From NCBI GenBank assembly GCA_027450005.1, contig DAIDKO010000096.1:24052-88051 (forward strand): 64,000 bases of DNA, written 5' to 3'. Positions 10,759-19,141 of this stretch are shown one piece after another (positions within the stretch are counted from its first letter, which is position 1; the number at the start of each line of letters is the position of its first letter). The position numbers were made by a program, and so were the translations under genes. The stretch comes from Rhodanobacter sp. (GTDB taxonomy: Bacteria; Pseudomonadota; Gammaproteobacteria; Xanthomonadales; Rhodanobacteraceae). The notes below the pieces were generated by a model that saw nothing but the letters and a program-made list of their open reading frames with translations, had not been told where the DNA came from and did not search any database.

Positions 10759-10928
10759 GGCAGGCCACTCCAGTTGAGGCACATCCCATGGCCGACTACG
10801 CACATCGACAACATGGCCAGCAGCACCAGCACAATCACGGCGAGCACGTGCGGCGGCGCGGGCGCGGCCGCCGCAAGCAGCACGGCTGCCCATGGCATCG
10901 GCTTTGCCAGCAGGTAAGGCCTGTTCAT
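10755..10928 (-). CDS. 57-aa hydrophobic protein
   Basis: MNRPYLLAKPMPWAAVLLAAAAPAPPHVLAVIVLVLLAMLSMCVVGHGMCLNWSGLP; 4-nt overlap at both ends. Confidence 0.6.
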   Translation of the reverse strand: MNRPYLLAKPMPWAAVLLAAAAPAPPHVLAVIVLVLLAMLSMCVVGHGMCLNWSGLP

Positions 10929-12496
10929 GGCGTGGCTCCGTTGAAGTCGATGAAGAAGGGCGTGTCGTGGAGGCGGTCGAGGCAGCTCGCATCCATGGTT
11001 TTCGGGTCGAGCTTTTCGACGAAGTGCTGCACCAGTTGCGGCCCGCATCCTGCCGATAGCACGCCGTGGCCCTGGCCCTTGAACACCAGCACCCGCGCGT
11101 CCGGCAGGTATTTCGCCACTTCCTCGGCATAGCGCGGGGGCGTGACCGGATCGTACTGGCCGGCCAGCAAAAGCACGGGCTTGTCGATCTTCAGCGGCTG
11201 ACGGAAGTCCGCGGGACGGGTACCCTTCGGCCATGCGGAACAGATCGCCTTGTAAGCGTCGATCATGTGCGTGCCGAGCAGGGTACCGGCGTCCTGCGGG
11301 CGCGCGGTAAGCAGGTCGGCGTCCTCGCTGCAGATCACCGAATAGGACATGCCACTGCCGGCAAGGTCGGCCATGTCCACGGTGAGCAGCTTCGCCTGCC
11401 CGAGCAACGGTCCGACGTCGCCATGCGCAGCCGCGTCGATGGACAGCGGCAGCAGGGCGGCCGTGACCGGCGAATAGGCGAACATCCGCACCACGCCGAC
11501 CAGCGAATCTTCGCTGAGCACGCGCTGCACCGTGCGGTAGCTTTGCGGGTCGCGGAAGCTGACCGGATGCGGGTTCGCGCGCAACGCATCGCGCAGCTGG
11601 ATCAAGGTCTGGTACGGATTGCCGAAGCGCTGCTTGCAGGCCGCATCGGCGTCGCAACGCGCGAACTGGGCTTTCAGCGCATCATCGAGGTTCTGCGCGA
11701 AGTCCTCGCCCAGTACGACGTCGTTCGGCACCGTGCTGTCCAGCACGATGCTGCGTACCGCGTCGGGGTAGCGCATCGCGTATTGCTGTGCCACGCGCGT
11801 GCCGTAGGAGACGCCGACCAGGTCGAACTGCGGCACGCCCAGCGCCTTACGTACGTCGTCCAGGTCCTGCACCGCGTCGGTGGTGGTGTAGTAGCGCGGA
11901 TCAGCATGCGACTGCACCTGCTTCAGGCAGTCGGCGGCCGCGGCGCGCAGCTTGGCCGGGTCGAAGCCGGTGTCATCGTCCGCCGAGGCCTTACCCCCGG
12001 CCTTGCAGTCCAGCGCATTCGACCCACCAACACCGCGCTGGTCGACCAGCAGGATGTCGCGATGGGCGCGCAGCGGCGCCAGCATGGCGCCGATCTGGCC
12101 GGCATACTCAGTGGCCGCCTGCCCCGGGCCGCCGGCGAGGAAGGCGAGCATGTCCGGCCTGGCCACCTGCGCGCCGGAACGCAGTACCGCGAGCTTCAAC
12201 GGGATCTTGCGGCCCTGCGGATCGGCGCGGTTCTCCGGCACGGTCAACGAGCCGCACCACGCCGCCGTGCTCAGGCCGCTATTCGGCTGGCCAAGTTCGC
12301 AGGCGGTGAGCGTTAGCCTACCCAGCCGCCAGGTGCGCGCAGGCGCGGGCTTCACACGGACCGGTGCGGAGGCCCCGCTTCGCGCCGGCGCCGTTGGCTG
12401 GTGACGAGGCGACGGCCGCCCTGCGAGGGTCGCTGCGATGACCGCTGCGGTCAGCGCAACGATCATGCCCATGCGCTTCCTCCGTTTCATGCTCAT
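10925..12496 (-). CDS. Secreted alpha/beta hydrolase, S33/TAP-like peptidase
   Basis: Signal-like N-terminus; LAFLAGGPGQAATEY; LVGVSYGTR; LLLAGQYDPVTPPRYAEEV; FKGQGHGV. Confidence 0.88.
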   Translation of the reverse strand: MSMKRRKRMGMIVALTAAVIAATLAGRPSPRHQPTAPARSGASAPVRVKPAPARTWRLGRLTLTACELGQPNSGLSTAAWCGSLTVPENRADPQGRKIPLKLAVLRSGAQVARPDMLAFLAGGPGQAATEYAGQIGAMLAPLRAHRDILLVDQRGVGGSNALDCKAGGKASADDDTGFDPAKLRAAAADCLKQVQSHADPRYYTTTDAVQDLDDVRKALGVPQFDLVGVSYGTRVAQQYAMRYPDAVRSIVLDSTVPNDVVLGEDFAQNLDDALKAQFARCDADAACKQRFGNPYQTLIQLRDALRANPHPVSFRDPQSYRTVQRVLSEDSLVGVVRMFAYSPVTAALLPLSIDAAAHGDVGPLLGQAKLLTVDMADLAGSGMSYSVICSEDADLLTARPQDAGTLLGTHMIDAYKAICSAWPKGTRPADFRQPLKIDKPVLLLAGQYDPVTPPRYAEEVAKYLPDARVLVFKGQGHGVLSAGCGPQLVQHFVEKLDPKTMDASCLDRLHDTPFFIDFNGATP

Positions 12497-12693
12497 GCAT
12501 CGCCTCCTGGTTCGAAGATGGATTCGATCGGACGTCCAAACAACTTGGCGATCTTGAAGGCCAGCGGCAGGCTGGGGTCGTACTTGCCGGTCTCGATGGC
12601 GTTAATCGTCTGCCGCGACACCTCGAGCCGCTCGGCGAGGTCTGCCTGTGACCAACCCTGCCTGCTACGCAGTTCGCGCACGTGGTTGTTCAT
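12493..12693 (-). CDS. Small XRE-family HTH regulator
   Basis: VRELRSRQGWSQADLAERLEVSRQTINAIETGKYDPSLPLAFKIAKLFG. Confidence 0.95.
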   Translation of the reverse strand: MNNHVRELRSRQGWSQADLAERLEVSRQTINAIETGKYDPSLPLAFKIAKLFGRPIESIFEPGGDA

Positions 12694-12709: not shown

Positions 12710-13312
12710 TCACGTCGCGTTCCCCGACCTGCGTCGATGAAGGATCGTCATCAGCACGGCGCCGACCGCCAGCGATGTCGTGAGGCCGATGAGCAGACCG
12801 CGCTGCCAGTCGCTCAACACGTGCCAGCCCAGCAGCAGAATCAACCCGAATACCGCAGCGGCGATACCTATCTGCCAGCGACGCGACAAGCCATCGTCGC
12901 AGGCCGCGATCCAATCGCCGCCGTAACGCCGAGCCGCCCAACCGCGGCCCAGCGCATGCAGCACCACCATCATCGGCCAGACGCCGAGGAGCACCGAGCC
13001 ATCCAGTCGGATCACTTTGGCAGCCACCAGGAAGCCGCCGACCAGGCACAGCGTACCCACCACCGTGCCAGCGAGGGCCAGGCCGATCAGGTTCGTGCGC
13101 TGCTCCAGTTCATAGCTGCCCATCACCAGCCGGAACATCGCGCGGGTTACCAGCAGCACCGGCGCGACCGGCAACAGGGCCAGTGCGGCACGCGCCCACA
13201 TGCTCTGCATATGCCCAACCATTGGCCAGACCAGCAGCATGATCAGGATGCAGGCCAGCATCGGCGGCCAGAACTCGCGCGCATAGCGACGCTGGTTTGC
13301 GTTCATCGACAT
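12710..13312 (-). CDS. Integral membrane protein
   Basis: Several hydrophobic helices; ATG at 13312 (MSMNANQRR) preceded by GGGAGAAGG. Confidence 0.75.
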   Translation of the reverse strand: MSMNANQRRYAREFWPPMLACILIMLLVWPMVGHMQSMWARAALALLPVAPVLLVTRAMFRLVMGSYELEQRTNLIGLALAGTVVGTLCLVGGFLVAAKVIRLDGSVLLGVWPMMVVLHALGRGWAARRYGGDWIAACDDGLSRRWQIGIAAAVFGLILLLGWHVLSDWQRGLLIGLTTSLAVGAVLMTILHRRRSGNAT

Positions 13313-13329
13313 GAGTGCCTTCTCCCGAT

Positions 13330-13347
13330 TGTAAAGCAAACTTTACA
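13330..13347. promoter_or_regulatory. Palindromic operator candidate 1
   Basis: TGTAAAG-CAAA-CTTTACA between the promoter region and the 209-aa ORF. Confidence 0.65.
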
Positions 13348-13375
13348 TTGGAGGCTAAAACCGGAGCCCCTGGAA

Positions 13376-13393
13376 TGTCAAGTACACTTGACA
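13376..13393. promoter_or_regulatory. Palindromic operator candidate 2 containing TTGACA
   Basis: TGTCAAGT-AC-ACTTGACA, 14 of 18 positions identical to the 13330 site. Confidence 0.65.
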
Positions 13394-13878: not shown

Positions 13879-14412
13879 ATGAAAAAGACTTTGCTCTCCG
13901 CTGCCCTCGTCGCCACTCTTGGCGCGTTGTCCTTCTTGCCGGCGGCGTCCGCAGCAACCGCTCCTACGAACACTGGCACCATCCAATTCAACGGCAAGGT
14001 GTTGGCAGATACCTGCACGGTAAGCATCAACGGTTCGGGCACCACCGTGACGCTGACGCCGGTGATGGCCACCAGCCTGGCTACTGCAGGCGCGACTGCT
14101 GGTGCGACTCCCTTCACCCTGGACCTGACCAACTGCGACACGAATGCCGCTCAGGCGACGTTGAGTTTTGCGAGCGGTTCGCACAACGCCACCGACGGCA
14201 ACCTCACGAATACCGGTACTGCCGGCAACGTCGAGGTTGAATTGCTCTCGGGCAGCACCCCCATCAATGTCACCACGGCAAACGGGGGGCCTGTCGTTCA
14301 GCTTAGTAACGGCGCAGGTAGCACGAGTATGACCGCGGAGTACTACGCCACGGGTGCAGCGACACCGGGCCTGGTCAGCACCAGCGCCAGCGTTACCTTC
14401 ACCTATCAGTAA
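13879..14412 (+). CDS. Fimbrial major subunit
   Basis: Signal peptide; GTIQFNGKVLADTCTVSI...FTLDLTNCDTN...VSTSASVTFTYQ. Confidence 0.9.
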   Translation: MKKTLLSAALVATLGALSFLPAASAATAPTNTGTIQFNGKVLADTCTVSINGSGTTVTLTPVMATSLATAGATAGATPFTLDLTNCDTNAAQATLSFASGSHNATDGNLTNTGTAGNVEVELLSGSTPINVTTANGGPVVQLSNGAGSTSMTAEYYATGAATPGLVSTSASVTFTYQ

Positions 14413-14499
14413 GCAATACCGCGTGCCGTGGCGGCCCAGGGGTCGCTGCGGCACGCCACCGCGCGCCCTGGGGCGTCCCGTCCGGCGGGGATATTTCCG

Positions 14500-15246
14500 A
14501 TGAAAAATTTCCTCTGCACCTTCGGCGGCGCTTTGGCAGTGCTGGTCGTCGGCATCGGCATGGCGCGCGCCAGCGTGGTGGTCGGTGGCACTCGGGTGGT
14601 ACTGCCTGCCCAGCAGGGAGAGGTTACCGTGCGCCTGTCCAACGAAGGCAACCATCCGGCGCTGGTCGAGGCATGGATCGACAGCGGCAACCTGAATTCG
14701 ACGCCAGACACCGCACATTCGCCCTTTCTGATCACGCCGCCGCTGTTCCGCATGGAGCCGCAGAAGGACCAGAGCCTGCGAATCATTTACACCCAAGGCG
14801 CCCAGCCGCTGCCGACCGACCGCGAATCGCTGTTTTGGCTAAACGTGTTGGAAATTCCGCCCAAGCCCAGCGGGCCACAAACCGCCAGCCGCAACTACCT
14901 GCAGTTCGCGATACGCTCCCGGCTGAAGCTGTTCTATCGCCCGGGCAGCCTGCCCGGTGAAGCCATCACGGCACCCGACAAGCTGGTTTTCAAGGCTAGT
15001 CAGGGGGCGCCTGCGGCATTGATCGTTCACAATCCCACGCCGTACTACATCACCATCAGCAAGCTTGCGCTCGGCACCGATGGGAAGCAGGTTGACGGCG
15101 CCCGCGGCATGGTGGCGCCCTTCGGTGAGCTGCGCCTTCCACTCAGCCGCATGGCGCAGCCGCCCGCGGCCGGCACCCCGCTCGGCTTCACCACCATTGA
15201 CGACTACGGCGCGGCAGACGCGCACAAGGGCACCGTGGCGCAATGA
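14500..15246 (+). CDS. Periplasmic fimbrial chaperone
   Basis: ASVVVGGTRVVLPAQQGEVTVRLSNEGNHPALVEAWID; FLITPPLFRMEPQKDQSLRIIYT; FWLNVLEIPPK. Confidence 0.93.
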   Translation: MKNFLCTFGGALAVLVVGIGMARASVVVGGTRVVLPAQQGEVTVRLSNEGNHPALVEAWIDSGNLNSTPDTAHSPFLITPPLFRMEPQKDQSLRIIYTQGAQPLPTDRESLFWLNVLEIPPKPSGPQTASRNYLQFAIRSRLKLFYRPGSLPGEAITAPDKLVFKASQGAPAALIVHNPTPYYITISKLALGTDGKQVDGARGMVAPFGELRLPLSRMAQPPAAGTPLGFTTIDDYGAADAHKGTVAQ

Positions 15247-18002
15247 CGCGGCTGCGCGACAGGCTCGGGCAGCTGACCGGGCGCCGCGTGGCGCTTGGGA
15301 TGGCGTGTGGCTTGGCCGCGAGCGCCGCCATGGGCTGCCCGCGCACCGCCTGGGCCGATGGCGAGGCCGCATCAGCCGGCGCAAGCGCGGAAGGTAGCTT
15401 CGCCAACTTCGACCGCAGCATGCTGGCCGGCGCCGGACATGGGACAGCGGACCTTTCGCGGTTCGAGCATGGTAACCCCGTGCTGCCAGGGATCTACAAC
15501 CTCGACATCTACCTAAATAAGCATTGGGTGGGTCGCATGGACGTGCGCTTTGCCGCGCCCGCTGCCAATACCAACGCGGTTCCCTGCGTCGACAGCCGCT
15601 TGCTCGACCGCATGGGCGTCGCTCCCGCCAAGACCGCCACCGCGGCAGCAGCGGCCGCAAAATTGGCATCGTCAGCCTGCATCGGCTTGGGCGACCTCAT
15701 CCCGGGCGCCACGTTGACGGTCGACATGTCCAGTCTGCGCGTCAACGCCAGCATACCGCAGGCCTTCATGAACCAACGGCCGCGGGGGTGGGTGAACCCC
15801 GCTTCGTGGGACGCCGGCGTAACGTCGTTCCTTCTCAACTACAACATCAACAGTTACCGGACTACGACCAGCGGGCGATACCTGGACAGCGCGTACCTCG
15901 GTCTGCGTGCCGGCTTCAACCTCGGCTTGTGGCAATTCCGCCAGGACAGTACCGCCTCGCAGGAATCGGGTACGAACCAGACCAGTCGGCGCCACTGGCA
16001 CAACATCGACGCGTACGTGCAGCGGGCGCTTCCCGGGATACGCGCCGTACTGAGCCTGGGCGATAGCTACACCGACGGCGCGGTTTTCGACAGTTACGGT
16101 CTGCGCGGCGCGCAACTGGCCACCGACGACCGAATGCTTCCCCAGTCACTGCGCGGCTATGCACCCGTGGTGCATGGCATCGCCTACACCAACGCCAAGG
16201 TCACGGTCACCCAGAACGGCGTGCAGATCTACCAGACGACGGTCGCGCCCGGTCCGTTCGTGATCAATGATCTTTACCCCACCGGCTACGGCGGTGATCT
16301 GGCGGTGAACGTGACGGAGGCCGATGGTCGCAAGCATAGTTTCACCGTGCCCTACGCTTCGTTGGCGCAACTGATGCGCCCTGGCGTCACCCGTTTCGAC
16401 ATCGCCGTCGGCCAACTGCGCGACAGCTTTCCTCAGAGCCGTCCCGACGTAATCCAGGCCTCGTTGCAGCATGGCTTCAGCAACCGCATCAGCGGCTATG
16501 CCGGAGTGCAGGGTTCGGCGGGATACGGCGCGGCGCTGGTCGGCGCTGCACTCAACACACCATACGGGGCGCTGGCGCTGGACATCACGCAGGCCCATGC
16601 CAGCATACCGCGCTATGGAAGTTACAACGGACAAAGCTACCGAGTCAGCTACAACAGGGTCCTTCCCGAAAGCGGTACCTCGCTGACCGTGGCTGCCGAC
16701 CGCTACTCCACCAGCGGCTTCCTGAGCCTGAGTGACGCTGAAACCGCGCGCGATTTCGCCCGGCAAGGCATGAATGCCCTTCAGTATCAGCCCGCGAGCG
16801 TACTGACGATCGATGGGTTACCCGTCCAGAGCCTGCTCACGCCTGCCCAGCTTGCTGCACTGACCGGAACGGTCTACAACAGTGGTGGTCTTTACACCGC
16901 GCGCGGCCTGCTGCAACAGCGCAACCGCTTCACTCTGACGCTCAACCAGCGCTTGGGAAGCGACGGTGGCTCGCTGTACGCCAACGCCTCGGTCAGCGAC
17001 TACTGGAACCATCCCGGCAATGACACACAGTTTCAAGTCGGCTACGACAACCACCTCGGGCGACTGGCTTACAGCATCTCCGCCAGCCGCGGACGCATCG
17101 CCCTGGGCGGCTACGACAATCAGGTGTCCCTCAACGCCAGCCTGCCGCTGGGTGACACGGCACACGCTCCGAGTATCTCCTTCAACCTTGGCCACGATAG
17201 CAACAGCGGCAACCAAGCGGAGAGCACCCTCAATGGCGCGCTTGGCGAATGGAACCAGTTCAACTATGGCGCCACGGCCTCGCACACCGGCAACGGCACC
17301 GGCAATGCCTACGACGTGAACGTCGGCTACAACAGCCGCTATGCCGTATTTGACGCCAGTGCCGGCGGCGGCCGTGGCTACTCGCAGGCATCCGTCGGTG
17401 CCAGCGGTGCGGTGGTCGCCCATCCCGGCGGCATCACTTTCGGTCAGCCGACCGGTGACACCGTCGCCATCGTGCACATGCCCGGCGCTACGGGCGCCCA
17501 CATCCTCAATGCCCCCGGCCTGAGCGTGGACCGCCACGGCTATGCGCTGGTGCCTTACTTGACGCCCTACCAGCGCGATACCATCGAGGTCGACCCGCAA
17601 GGCCTGCCGCTGGGCGTGCAGTTGGCAGCCACCAGCGCCGACGTCGCGCCCTATGCCGGTGCGACAGTGATGGTGAACTTCAAGAGTACGTCAGGTCGGG
17701 CCGTGATCGTACGCATCCGCCTTGCGGACGGCCAGCCCCCTCCTTTCGGCGCGCAGGTGTTCGACGCAAAATACCGGCCGCTCGGCGTGGTCGGCCAGGG
17801 CGGCCTGTCACTGCTGCGGGGCGTTGGGGCCAACGGGAAGCTCAGCGTCCAGTGGGACGATGACCGCGGCGCGGCGCATACCTGCGGATTCACCTATGCT
17901 TTGCCGGCAATCGGTCGATCTTCTGCGGCGTATCAGCAGATGCAGGCGACATGCGCTCACGAAAGCGCCGCGTCGCCGTCACAGAAGGAAAACCGCACAT
18001 GA
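15243..18002 (+). CDS. Outer membrane fimbrial usher
   Basis: GIYNLDIYLNKHWVGRMDVRF; GPFVINDLYPTGYGGDLAVNVTEADG; PFGAQVFD. Confidence 0.95.
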   Translation: MTRLRDRLGQLTGRRVALGMACGLAASAAMGCPRTAWADGEAASAGASAEGSFANFDRSMLAGAGHGTADLSRFEHGNPVLPGIYNLDIYLNKHWVGRMDVRFAAPAANTNAVPCVDSRLLDRMGVAPAKTATAAAAAAKLASSACIGLGDLIPGATLTVDMSSLRVNASIPQAFMNQRPRGWVNPASWDAGVTSFLLNYNINSYRTTTSGRYLDSAYLGLRAGFNLGLWQFRQDSTASQESGTNQTSRRHWHNIDAYVQRALPGIRAVLSLGDSYTDGAVFDSYGLRGAQLATDDRMLPQSLRGYAPVVHGIAYTNAKVTVTQNGVQIYQTTVAPGPFVINDLYPTGYGGDLAVNVTEADGRKHSFTVPYASLAQLMRPGVTRFDIAVGQLRDSFPQSRPDVIQASLQHGFSNRISGYAGVQGSAGYGAALVGAALNTPYGALALDITQAHASIPRYGSYNGQSYRVSYNRVLPESGTSLTVAADRYSTSGFLSLSDAETARDFARQGMNALQYQPASVLTIDGLPVQSLLTPAQLAALTGTVYNSGGLYTARGLLQQRNRFTLTLNQRLGSDGGSLYANASVSDYWNHPGNDTQFQVGYDNHLGRLAYSISASRGRIALGGYDNQVSLNASLPLGDTAHAPSISFNLGHDSNSGNQAESTLNGALGEWNQFNYGATASHTGNGTGNAYDVNVGYNSRYAVFDASAGGGRGYSQASVGASGAVVAHPGGITFGQPTGDTVAIVHMPGATGAHILNAPGLSVDRHGYALVPYLTPYQRDTIEVDPQGLPLGVQLAATSADVAPYAGATVMVNFKSTSGRAVIVRIRLADGQPPPFGAQVFDAKYRPLGVVGQGGLSLLRGVGANGKLSVQWDDDRGAAHTCGFTYALPAIGRSSAAYQQMQATCAHESAASPSQKENRT

Positions 18003-19141
18003 CCTGTCACGCTGCGATACACCTGTGGCGGCCAACCATGAAGATCATCCAGGCGCTGCAGCTGCTGGCAATCCTGCTGCTGTTCGCGATCGTGCGACCC
18101 GCCATGGCCGCCCAGTCGCCAGCCTGTGTCCCTTCGGCGTCCACCGCAAGCATCACGCTGCCCGCAACCGGCATTTCCCCCGGGCAGAGCAATGGTCTGA
18201 TCGGTTCACCCGGGACGGCAACGATCACGTTCAATTGCTCGACACCGTTTCTAAACGACACGAACTTTGAAGACGACTTCGCCCTGATGACCGGCAATCT
18301 TGCGTCGATGGATACGATGACGGTCCCGCCCGGTGGCTCCGGCGGCATCATGTTCACCACCAACTTGCCGGGCATCGAAGTTCAACTCACCGCCGCCCAA
18401 GTGCAAGCCAGCGGTGGCAACAATGGCCCGAATGGCGGGCCCGGCTGGAACATGGGAGCCATCGACTGCATCAGCTTCACCCAGACCTCCCGCAACTGGT
18501 ACTGCACCCCCGCTAATACGTTGACCGTGGCGTTCACAGCGCAACTCGTCAAGACTGGCTCGGTCACTCCCGGTCTCGGCACAGTGAACAGTATCAACCT
18601 ACTCAACTTCTTCGATCAGGACACCTATACCCTCTACACGTGCATTAAAAAAAAGTGCTCTGTCTCCAGCCCGCAGACCGACTCACCAACGAATATTGGC
18701 ACCCTCACCCTCAACGCGGTGACGGTCTCCGTGACCGCGTGCTCGGTTGCGATCGACCCAACTGTGGTGACCTTGCCGACAATAGCGACCGCCGCGCTCA
18801 CCGGTACCGGTGCGACGACCGGCAAGCAACCGTTTAGCGTGCAACTTAACTGCCCCGCGGGCGCCAACCTCTCCATTACGCTTGCCACGTCAAACCCTCA
18901 GGCCGGGGTCACGGGCGTGATTGCACCGACCACGGGCAGCGGCTATGCGCAGAACGTGGGGGTACAGTTGCTCAGGTCCGACGGCACGACTCCCGTGCCT
19001 TTCGGCACAGCCATCTCGGAAGGCACGACGACTGGCGGCATCATCAGCCTGCCGTTTTACGCTCAGTACTTCCAGACCGGTACATCGGCGAGTGCTGGAA
19101 ATGTGACCGCGACGGCCACCTACACGCTTACTTACCAGTAG
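17999..19141 (+). CDS. Fimbrial tip/adhesin-like subunit
   Basis: ATGA overlap with usher; signal peptide; repeated Cys; C-terminal GNVTATATYTLTYQ donor-strand-like end. Confidence 0.8.
   Translation: MTCHAAIHLWRPTMKIIQALQLLAILLLFAIVRPAMAAQSPACVPSASTASITLPATGISPGQSNGLIGSPGTATITFNCSTPFLNDTNFEDDFALMTGNLASMDTMTVPPGGSGGIMFTTNLPGIEVQLTAAQVQASGGNNGPNGGPGWNMGAIDCISFTQTSRNWYCTPANTLTVAFTAQLVKTGSVTPGLGTVNSINLLNFFDQDTYTLYTCIKKKCSVSSPQTDSPTNIGTLTLNAVTVSVTACSVAIDPTVVTLPTIATAALTGTGATTGKQPFSVQLNCPAGANLSITLATSNPQAGVTGVIAPTTGSGYAQNVGVQLLRSDGTTPVPFGTAISEGTTTGGIISLPFYAQYFQTGTSASAGNVTATATYTLTYQ

What the first reader, a model, noticed from the sequence alone, without database searches (positions are those of the whole stretch)
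13330..13393. Two related 18-bp palindromes upstream of the XRE operon, one holding a consensus -35
TGTAAAGCAAACTTTACA (13330-13347) and TGTCAAGTACACTTGACA (13376-13393) are both dyad-symmetric, match at 14 of 18 positions and lie 46 bp centre to centre. Read on the minus strand, the distal one carries TTGACA pointing into the operon. Arrangement fits autoregulation by the 66-aa XRE protein (inference).
Basis: partly seen in the sequence, partly recalled or inferred. Interest (0 to 1): 0.62.

Follow-up and report, generated by a model that had tools for sequence, protein, structure and literature searches.

The report
Twin operators of a CylR2-like repressor
Two matching DNA palindromes flank the promoter of an operon that encodes a membrane protein and a tiny repressor; the same paired signal recurs with relatives of this repressor in very different microbes, including some archaea, so it is very likely the switch by which the repressor turns down its own operon.

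Summary
The palindromes are where stated, match at 14 of 18 positions, and are the only perfect matches in the genome. The autoregulation idea is strongly supported computationally, with no binding data. Read on the minus strand, the right half of 13376-13393 is the -35 (TTGACA), a -10-like TAGCCT lies at 13357-13352, and 13330-13347 covers the expected +1: two operators clamping one promoter. The promoter reads a 6-TM membrane protein, a 66-aa XRE protein (closest named structure CylR2) and a TAP-like hydrolase. The pair is kept upstream of this operon across the family: 168 of 234 genomes exactly, reversed-pattern control 0, never without the XRE gene. Its geometry is fixed (TTGACA, 17-18 bp, TAnnnT). 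In distant relatives the operator changes with the recognition helix: SRQT/SRQS proteins go with TGTMAAG, SRQA proteins with TGTCAGG, 19 of 19 within-genome comparisons, although this reflects only one or two evolutionary switches. Similar pairs precede XRE/membrane pairs in Streptomyces, Bacillota and haloarchaea. Extra pairs precede an exported hydrolase and a Sel1-like gene elsewhere, so regulons can exceed one operon. The biology is a known kind (autoregulated XRE repressor with membrane partner); the breadth of the shared operator is the interesting part.

The parts
13376..13393 (-). distal operator TGTCAAGTGTACTTGACA (minus strand); its downstream half is the -35 hexamer TTGACA (13381-13376)
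   Evidence: in 66 aligned family pairs position 15 of this site is always G, as a -35 needs, against 53 G / 13 T in the proximal site
13352..13357 (-). -10-like hexamer TAGCCT, 18 bp from the TTGACA
   Evidence: TAnnnT occurs 31 times at a 17-bp and 24 times at an 18-bp spacer in 66 family promoters, and 0-2 times at each other spacer
13330..13347 (-). proximal operator TGTAAAGTTTGCTTTACA, covering the expected transcription start (about 13345, inferred)
13318..13326 (-). ribosome-binding site GGGAGAAGG of the membrane gene
   Evidence: sequence
12710..13312 (-). 200-aa membrane protein with six hydrophobic segments; the family has a DELEQR loop motif (YELEQR here); possible sensor or anti-repressor (inferred)
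   Evidence: no Pfam family
12493..12693 (-). 66-aa XRE/HTH_3 regulator, CylR2-like; recognition helix VSRQTIN
   Evidence: HTH_3, 1.2e-17; 9k3w 2e-22; CylR2 1utx 1e-13
10925..12496 (-). 523-aa TAP-like alpha/beta hydrolase, start overlaps the XRE stop by 4 bp; third gene of the operon
   Evidence: order operators-membrane-XRE-TAP in 57 of 71 relatives, plus 11 with an extra exported hydrolase first

Best explanation
The two palindromes are a pair of operators for the XRE protein of the same operon. A dimer on the distal site covers the -35 and a dimer on the proximal site covers the start point, so RNA polymerase is kept off and the operon (membrane protein, XRE, TAP-like hydrolase) holds itself at a low level. 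The membrane protein probably senses something at the membrane and relieves repression, as CylR1 is thought to do for CylR2. Shown here: sequence, promoter geometry, conservation, gene order, co-occurrence and co-variation. Inferred: binding, repression rather than activation, and the role of the membrane protein (about 0.5 on that last step). The confidence given is for the core claim, operators of the operon's own XRE protein.
For: Pair in 168 of 234 family genomes, reversed-pattern control 0. No genome has the pair without the XRE gene; of 28 XRE genomes without an exact pair, 20 were inspected and 18 have a relaxed pair. 70 of 71 named relatives keep the pair with the operon. Arms are near-invariant (about 2 bits per base, except the free positions) while centres mostly are not (about 0.3-0.5 bits; one distal centre position 1.1), and TTGACA-17/18-TAnnnT lies inside and between the sites. 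The operator variant follows the XRE clade: G at position 6 in at least 2 of 4 half-sites in 29 of 34 SRQA loci against 2 of 86 SRQT/S loci, 19 of 19 within-genome comparisons. Pairs precede XRE/membrane pairs in other phyla and in two haloarchaea, in both gene orders. Extra pairs at other genes in genomes that have the XRE. The XRE has no sensor domain and its closest named structure is the repressor CylR2.
Against: No binding or expression data. Operator and XRE gene are neighbours, so joint loss from a genome proves little. Co-variation rests on one or two evolutionary switches. Spacing varies 43-47 bp in the family and 17-47 elsewhere, so no fixed cooperative contact is implied. Five of 18 plasmid loci (two Deinococcus, Arthrobacter, Halostagnicola, Pseudoalteromonas) lack a clear pair. 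The -10 here matches only 3 of 6 consensus bases.
Confidence: 0.87

Rival explanations
1. The palindromes bind a different dimeric regulator encoded elsewhere, and the XRE gene is merely one of its targets.
For: No binding data exist; extra pairs at an exported hydrolase and a Sel1-like gene show that such sites also occur away from the XRE gene.
Against: Similar pairs follow this XRE family across phyla and into archaea, where other regulators would differ; the operator variant differs between XRE paralogue clades within single genomes; no family genome searched has the pair without the XRE gene.
Confidence: 0.07
2. The XRE protein binds both sites but activates the promoter, or one site represses and the other activates.
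For: XRE proteins can activate (general knowledge); the direction of control was not tested.
Against: One site overlaps the -35 and the other the start point, positions expected for repression; the -35 is full consensus; CylR2, the closest named relative, is a repressor (PMC3709268).
Confidence: 0.08
3. The repeats work as RNA or DNA hairpins, such as a terminator or attenuator.
For: Both are perfect 7-bp inverted repeats; the proximal one would lie at the 5' end of the mRNA.
Against: The distal site lies upstream of the expected start and is not transcribed; no terminator-like site was found there; base identity of the arms, not only pairing, is conserved, and the -35 constraint is kept.
Confidence: 0.02
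4. Chance palindromes with no function.
For: 18 palindromes of this shape occur in the window against 9.4 in shuffles, so single ones are common.
Against: Conservation across the family with control 0; 0 of 200 shuffles give such a pair.
Confidence: 0.005

Closest known systems
CylR1/CylR2 of the Enterococcus faecalis cytolysin operon (PMC3709268; structures 1utx, 2xiu)
   Same: 66-aa stand-alone XRE protein with a nearly identical recognition helix, encoded beside a small membrane protein; CylR2 is a promoter-binding repressor and CylR1 is needed for induction
   Different: Here the regulator lies inside the operon it is thought to control, with a 6-TM partner (CylR1 has 3 predicted TM) and a hydrolase instead of a lantibiotic; the published CylR2 operator could not be read here, so the operators were not compared
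XRE palindromic motifs catalogued by Wang et al. 2025 (PMC12565409)
   Same: Autoregulated XRE proteins with palindromic operators upstream, 9 of 10 tested confirmed by EMSA
   Different: They took 200 bp upstream of the XRE ORF, which would miss operators lying about 640 bp or more upstream of it as here; their motif table is in a supplement I could not open, so this motif may be listed there
PDB 9k3w, 'Transcriptional regulator, PbsX family'
   Same: Closest solved structure by sequence (2e-22)
   Different: Organism and operator unknown to me; no paper was found
XRE/DUF2178 gene pairs in haloarchaea and Streptomyces (annotation)
   Same: Adjacent XRE and membrane genes with a similar operator pair (Haladaptatus, Halalkalicoccus, Streptomyces melanogenes)
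   Different: Membrane partner is shorter and carries another family name; spacing 17-33 bp; annotated only

Membership tests
XRE / HTH_3 regulators | HTH_3 domain above the curated cut-off | tested here: met
   PF01381, 64.1 bits against cut-off 23
CylR2-like stand-alone regulators | about 66 aa, no extra sensor domain, sequence relative of CylR2 | tested here: met
   66 aa; CylR2 1utx E 1e-13 over residues 3-61
CylR2-like stand-alone regulators | encoded next to a membrane protein | tested here: met
CylR1/CylR2 system | membrane partner homologous to CylR1 | not tested
   CylR1 sequence was not fetched; the partner here has 6 hydrophobic segments and no Pfam family
Autoregulated XRE repressor | palindromic operators overlapping the core promoter of its own operon | tested here: met
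Autoregulated XRE repressor | protein binds the operators and represses | not testable with these tools
   needs EMSA and reporter assays
Type II toxin-antitoxin (HipB/Y4mF-like antitoxin) | curated antitoxin model above cut-off and a toxin partner | tested here: not met
   couple_hipB 47.3 bits, cut-off 71.65; partners are a membrane protein and a hydrolase

The most novel reading that the evidence does not exclude
One nearly constant operator code, paired TGTMAAG-N4-CTTKACA, serves a family of CylR2-like regulators paired with membrane proteins across several bacterial phyla and haloarchaea. If so, this is a widespread, little-noticed signalling module (membrane sensor plus minimal repressor without phosphorelay) whose targets can be read directly from genome sequence.
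Probability: 0.6. Interest if true: 0.68.

Novelty: new member of a known kind. Interest (0 to 1): 0.55.

Why it matters
It gives an experimentally ready operator and a genome-readable code for a large group of small XRE proteins annotated only as 'helix-turn-helix transcriptional regulator'. It also makes a standing question testable: how a membrane protein without phosphorelay (CylR1 type) releases a minimal repressor, in ordinary soil bacteria instead of a toxin operon.

Tried and rejected
A genome-wide regulon: rejected for this genome; its two sites are the only perfect matches to TGTMAAG-N4-CTTKACA, and only three further places have 2 mismatches, fewer than the 8 of the reversed control; the assembly is 88% complete. 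Naming the membrane protein: Pfam, NCBIfam and a Foldseek search of the PDB gave nothing credible, best E 0.3. Strict independence of the helix/operator co-variation: the tree shows only one or two residue switches, so the Fisher value 2e-20 must not be read as independent events. A rhodopsin/HTH paper as precedent: that regulator is ArsR-type, not XRE. The CylR2 DNA-binding paper (PMC517608) is not held. Hairpin/terminator reading: no terminator-like site at the palindromes.

Full report
Observation. Both palindromes are at the stated coordinates with 7-bp arms and a 4-bp centre, 46 bp apart, 14 of 18 positions equal. In the own genome (2.9 Mb, 88% complete) they are the only perfect matches to TGTMAAG-N4-CTTKACA. 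In the window they are the only pair of similar palindromes within 80 bp, and 0 of 200 shuffles made one.

Surroundings. On the minus strand the order is: distal palindrome with TTGACA, 18 bp, TAGCCT, proximal palindrome, GGGAGAAGG, ATG 13312. The genes are a 200-aa membrane protein with six hydrophobic segments (AlphaFold mean pLDDT 85), the 66-aa XRE protein and a 523-aa TAP-like alpha/beta hydrolase whose start overlaps the XRE stop by 4 bp. In the other direction a FimA-like fimbrial gene starts at 13879.

Conservation in the family. The membrane protein has relatives in 181 of 234 family genomes, the XRE protein at E <= 1e-18 in 196, and the exact operator pair in 168, with 0 for the reversed pattern. 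Crossing the tables by hand: 168 genomes with both XRE and pair, 28 with XRE only, 38 with neither, 0 with the pair only. Twenty of the 28 were looked at (plus L018 and L024): 18 have a pair with one or a few mismatches or a 28-bp spacing, one is cut by a contig end and one shows a single site. In 71 named loci, mostly Rhodanobacter, Dyella, Frateuria and relatives, 70 carry the pair, and the other is cut by the contig end 4 bases upstream of the gene match. Gene order is operators-membrane-XRE-TAP in 57 and operators-exported hydrolase-membrane-XRE-TAP in 11. Because operator and gene are neighbours, joint absence is weak evidence; joint retention with a fixed design is the stronger part.

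Promoter design. In 66 family pairs with 43-47 bp spacing the arms are near-invariant and the four centre bases are mostly not. These sites were picked by resemblance to the motif, so the invariance of the arms is partly by construction; the free positions and the spacer are not. TAnnnT lies 17 or 18 bp after the distal site in 55 of 66 and almost never elsewhere. Position 15, G in a -35 and left free (G or T) in the motif, is G in 66 of 66 distal sites but G/T 53/13 in proximal sites (Fisher 1e-4, relatedness not corrected). The distal site is therefore constrained both as operator and as -35, and the proximal one only as operator. This is the anatomy of promoter occlusion.

Targets beyond the operon. 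Three genomes of one genus have a second pair upstream of an exported Sel1-like gene (L036, L038, L039). In two others a pair precedes an exported alpha/beta hydrolase (L086, L088), related to the gene that sits inside the operon in some relatives. L088 ends at the contig edge, so an XRE gene may lie beyond it.

Who binds. More distant XRE relatives were collected and the best site pair upstream was found with positions 4 and 6 left free. With T or S after SRQ, position 6 of the half-site is A (158 of 164 and 170 of 180). With A after SRQ it is mostly G (82 of 136). By locus, 29 of 34 SRQA against 2 of 86 SRQT/S have at least two G half-sites; in 19 genomes holding both classes the SRQA copy always has more G. 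The tree needs only about two residue changes, so this shows that each XRE clade keeps its own operator variant, not many independent co-changes. Spacing differs too (mostly 40 against 31-34 bp). This points to the XRE protein as the binder.

Breadth. Plasmid relatives from other groups were checked with a fixed test, the best pair within 200 bp upstream of the XRE/membrane unit: 13 of 18 have a pair scoring 23-28 of 28 that none of 500 shuffles reached, among them Pseudomonas, Azospirillum, Eleftheria, two Streptomyces, Pusillibacter, Sporosarcina, Lactiplantibacillus, Listeria innocua, Staphylococcus xylosus and the haloarchaea Haladaptatus and Halalkalicoccus. Bacillus subtilis, also counted, has one clear and one poor site. 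Deinococcus (two), Arthrobacter, Halostagnicola and Pseudoalteromonas have no clear pair. These are simple shuffles and a hand-picked set, so the breadth is a lead, not a census. Several membrane partners share a DE-x(2,5)-R loop motif (11 of 16 against 0.4 expected; 40 of 41 in the family set).

Comparison. The closest named system is CylR1/CylR2: a 66-aa repressor with a membrane partner needed for induction by an unknown route (PMC3709268). The protein resembles CylR2; homology of the membrane partners was not tested. A 2025 survey catalogued palindromic XRE motifs in the 200 bp upstream of XRE ORFs and confirmed 9 of 10 by EMSA (PMC12565409); the operators here lie much further upstream, and its motif table could not be opened, so partial prior knowledge of the motif is possible.

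Verdict. Operators of the cognate XRE protein: very likely (0.87). Repression by promoter occlusion: likely. Membrane protein as signal input: about even. The kind is known; the operator shared across phyla and two domains deserves a specialist's look.

Noticed in passing
L036 1501-1561, L038 1501-1561, L039 1501-1560: Second operator pair upstream of an exported Sel1-like protein of about 280 aa in three genomes of one genus: a likely trans target of the regulator.
   Followed up: partly
L086 2076-2140, L088 1501-1562: Operator pair upstream of an exported alpha/beta hydrolase that in 11 of 71 relatives is the first gene of the operon itself.
   Followed up: partly
L068 1727-1772, L069 2342-2387, L070 638-683: Three genomes of the window's own genus have the two palindromes only 28 bp apart, with a different promoter geometry.
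   Followed up: no
L307 and L317, upstream of the XRE/membrane genes: Haloarchaeal plasmids carry a similar operator pair, without the bacterial -35 constraint.
   Followed up: partly
window 13879-19141: FimA-like pilin, a likely chaperone, a 919-aa usher-like protein and a tip-like protein: apparently a chaperone-usher fimbrial cluster reading away from the operon.
   Followed up: no
membrane partners (window 12710-13312 and L304-L321), loop between hydrophobic segments 2 and 3: DE-x(2,5)-R motif shared by membrane partners that otherwise look unrelated (DELEQR, DEMARR, DELQRR, DERDKALERR); a candidate contact site for the XRE protein.
   Followed up: partly
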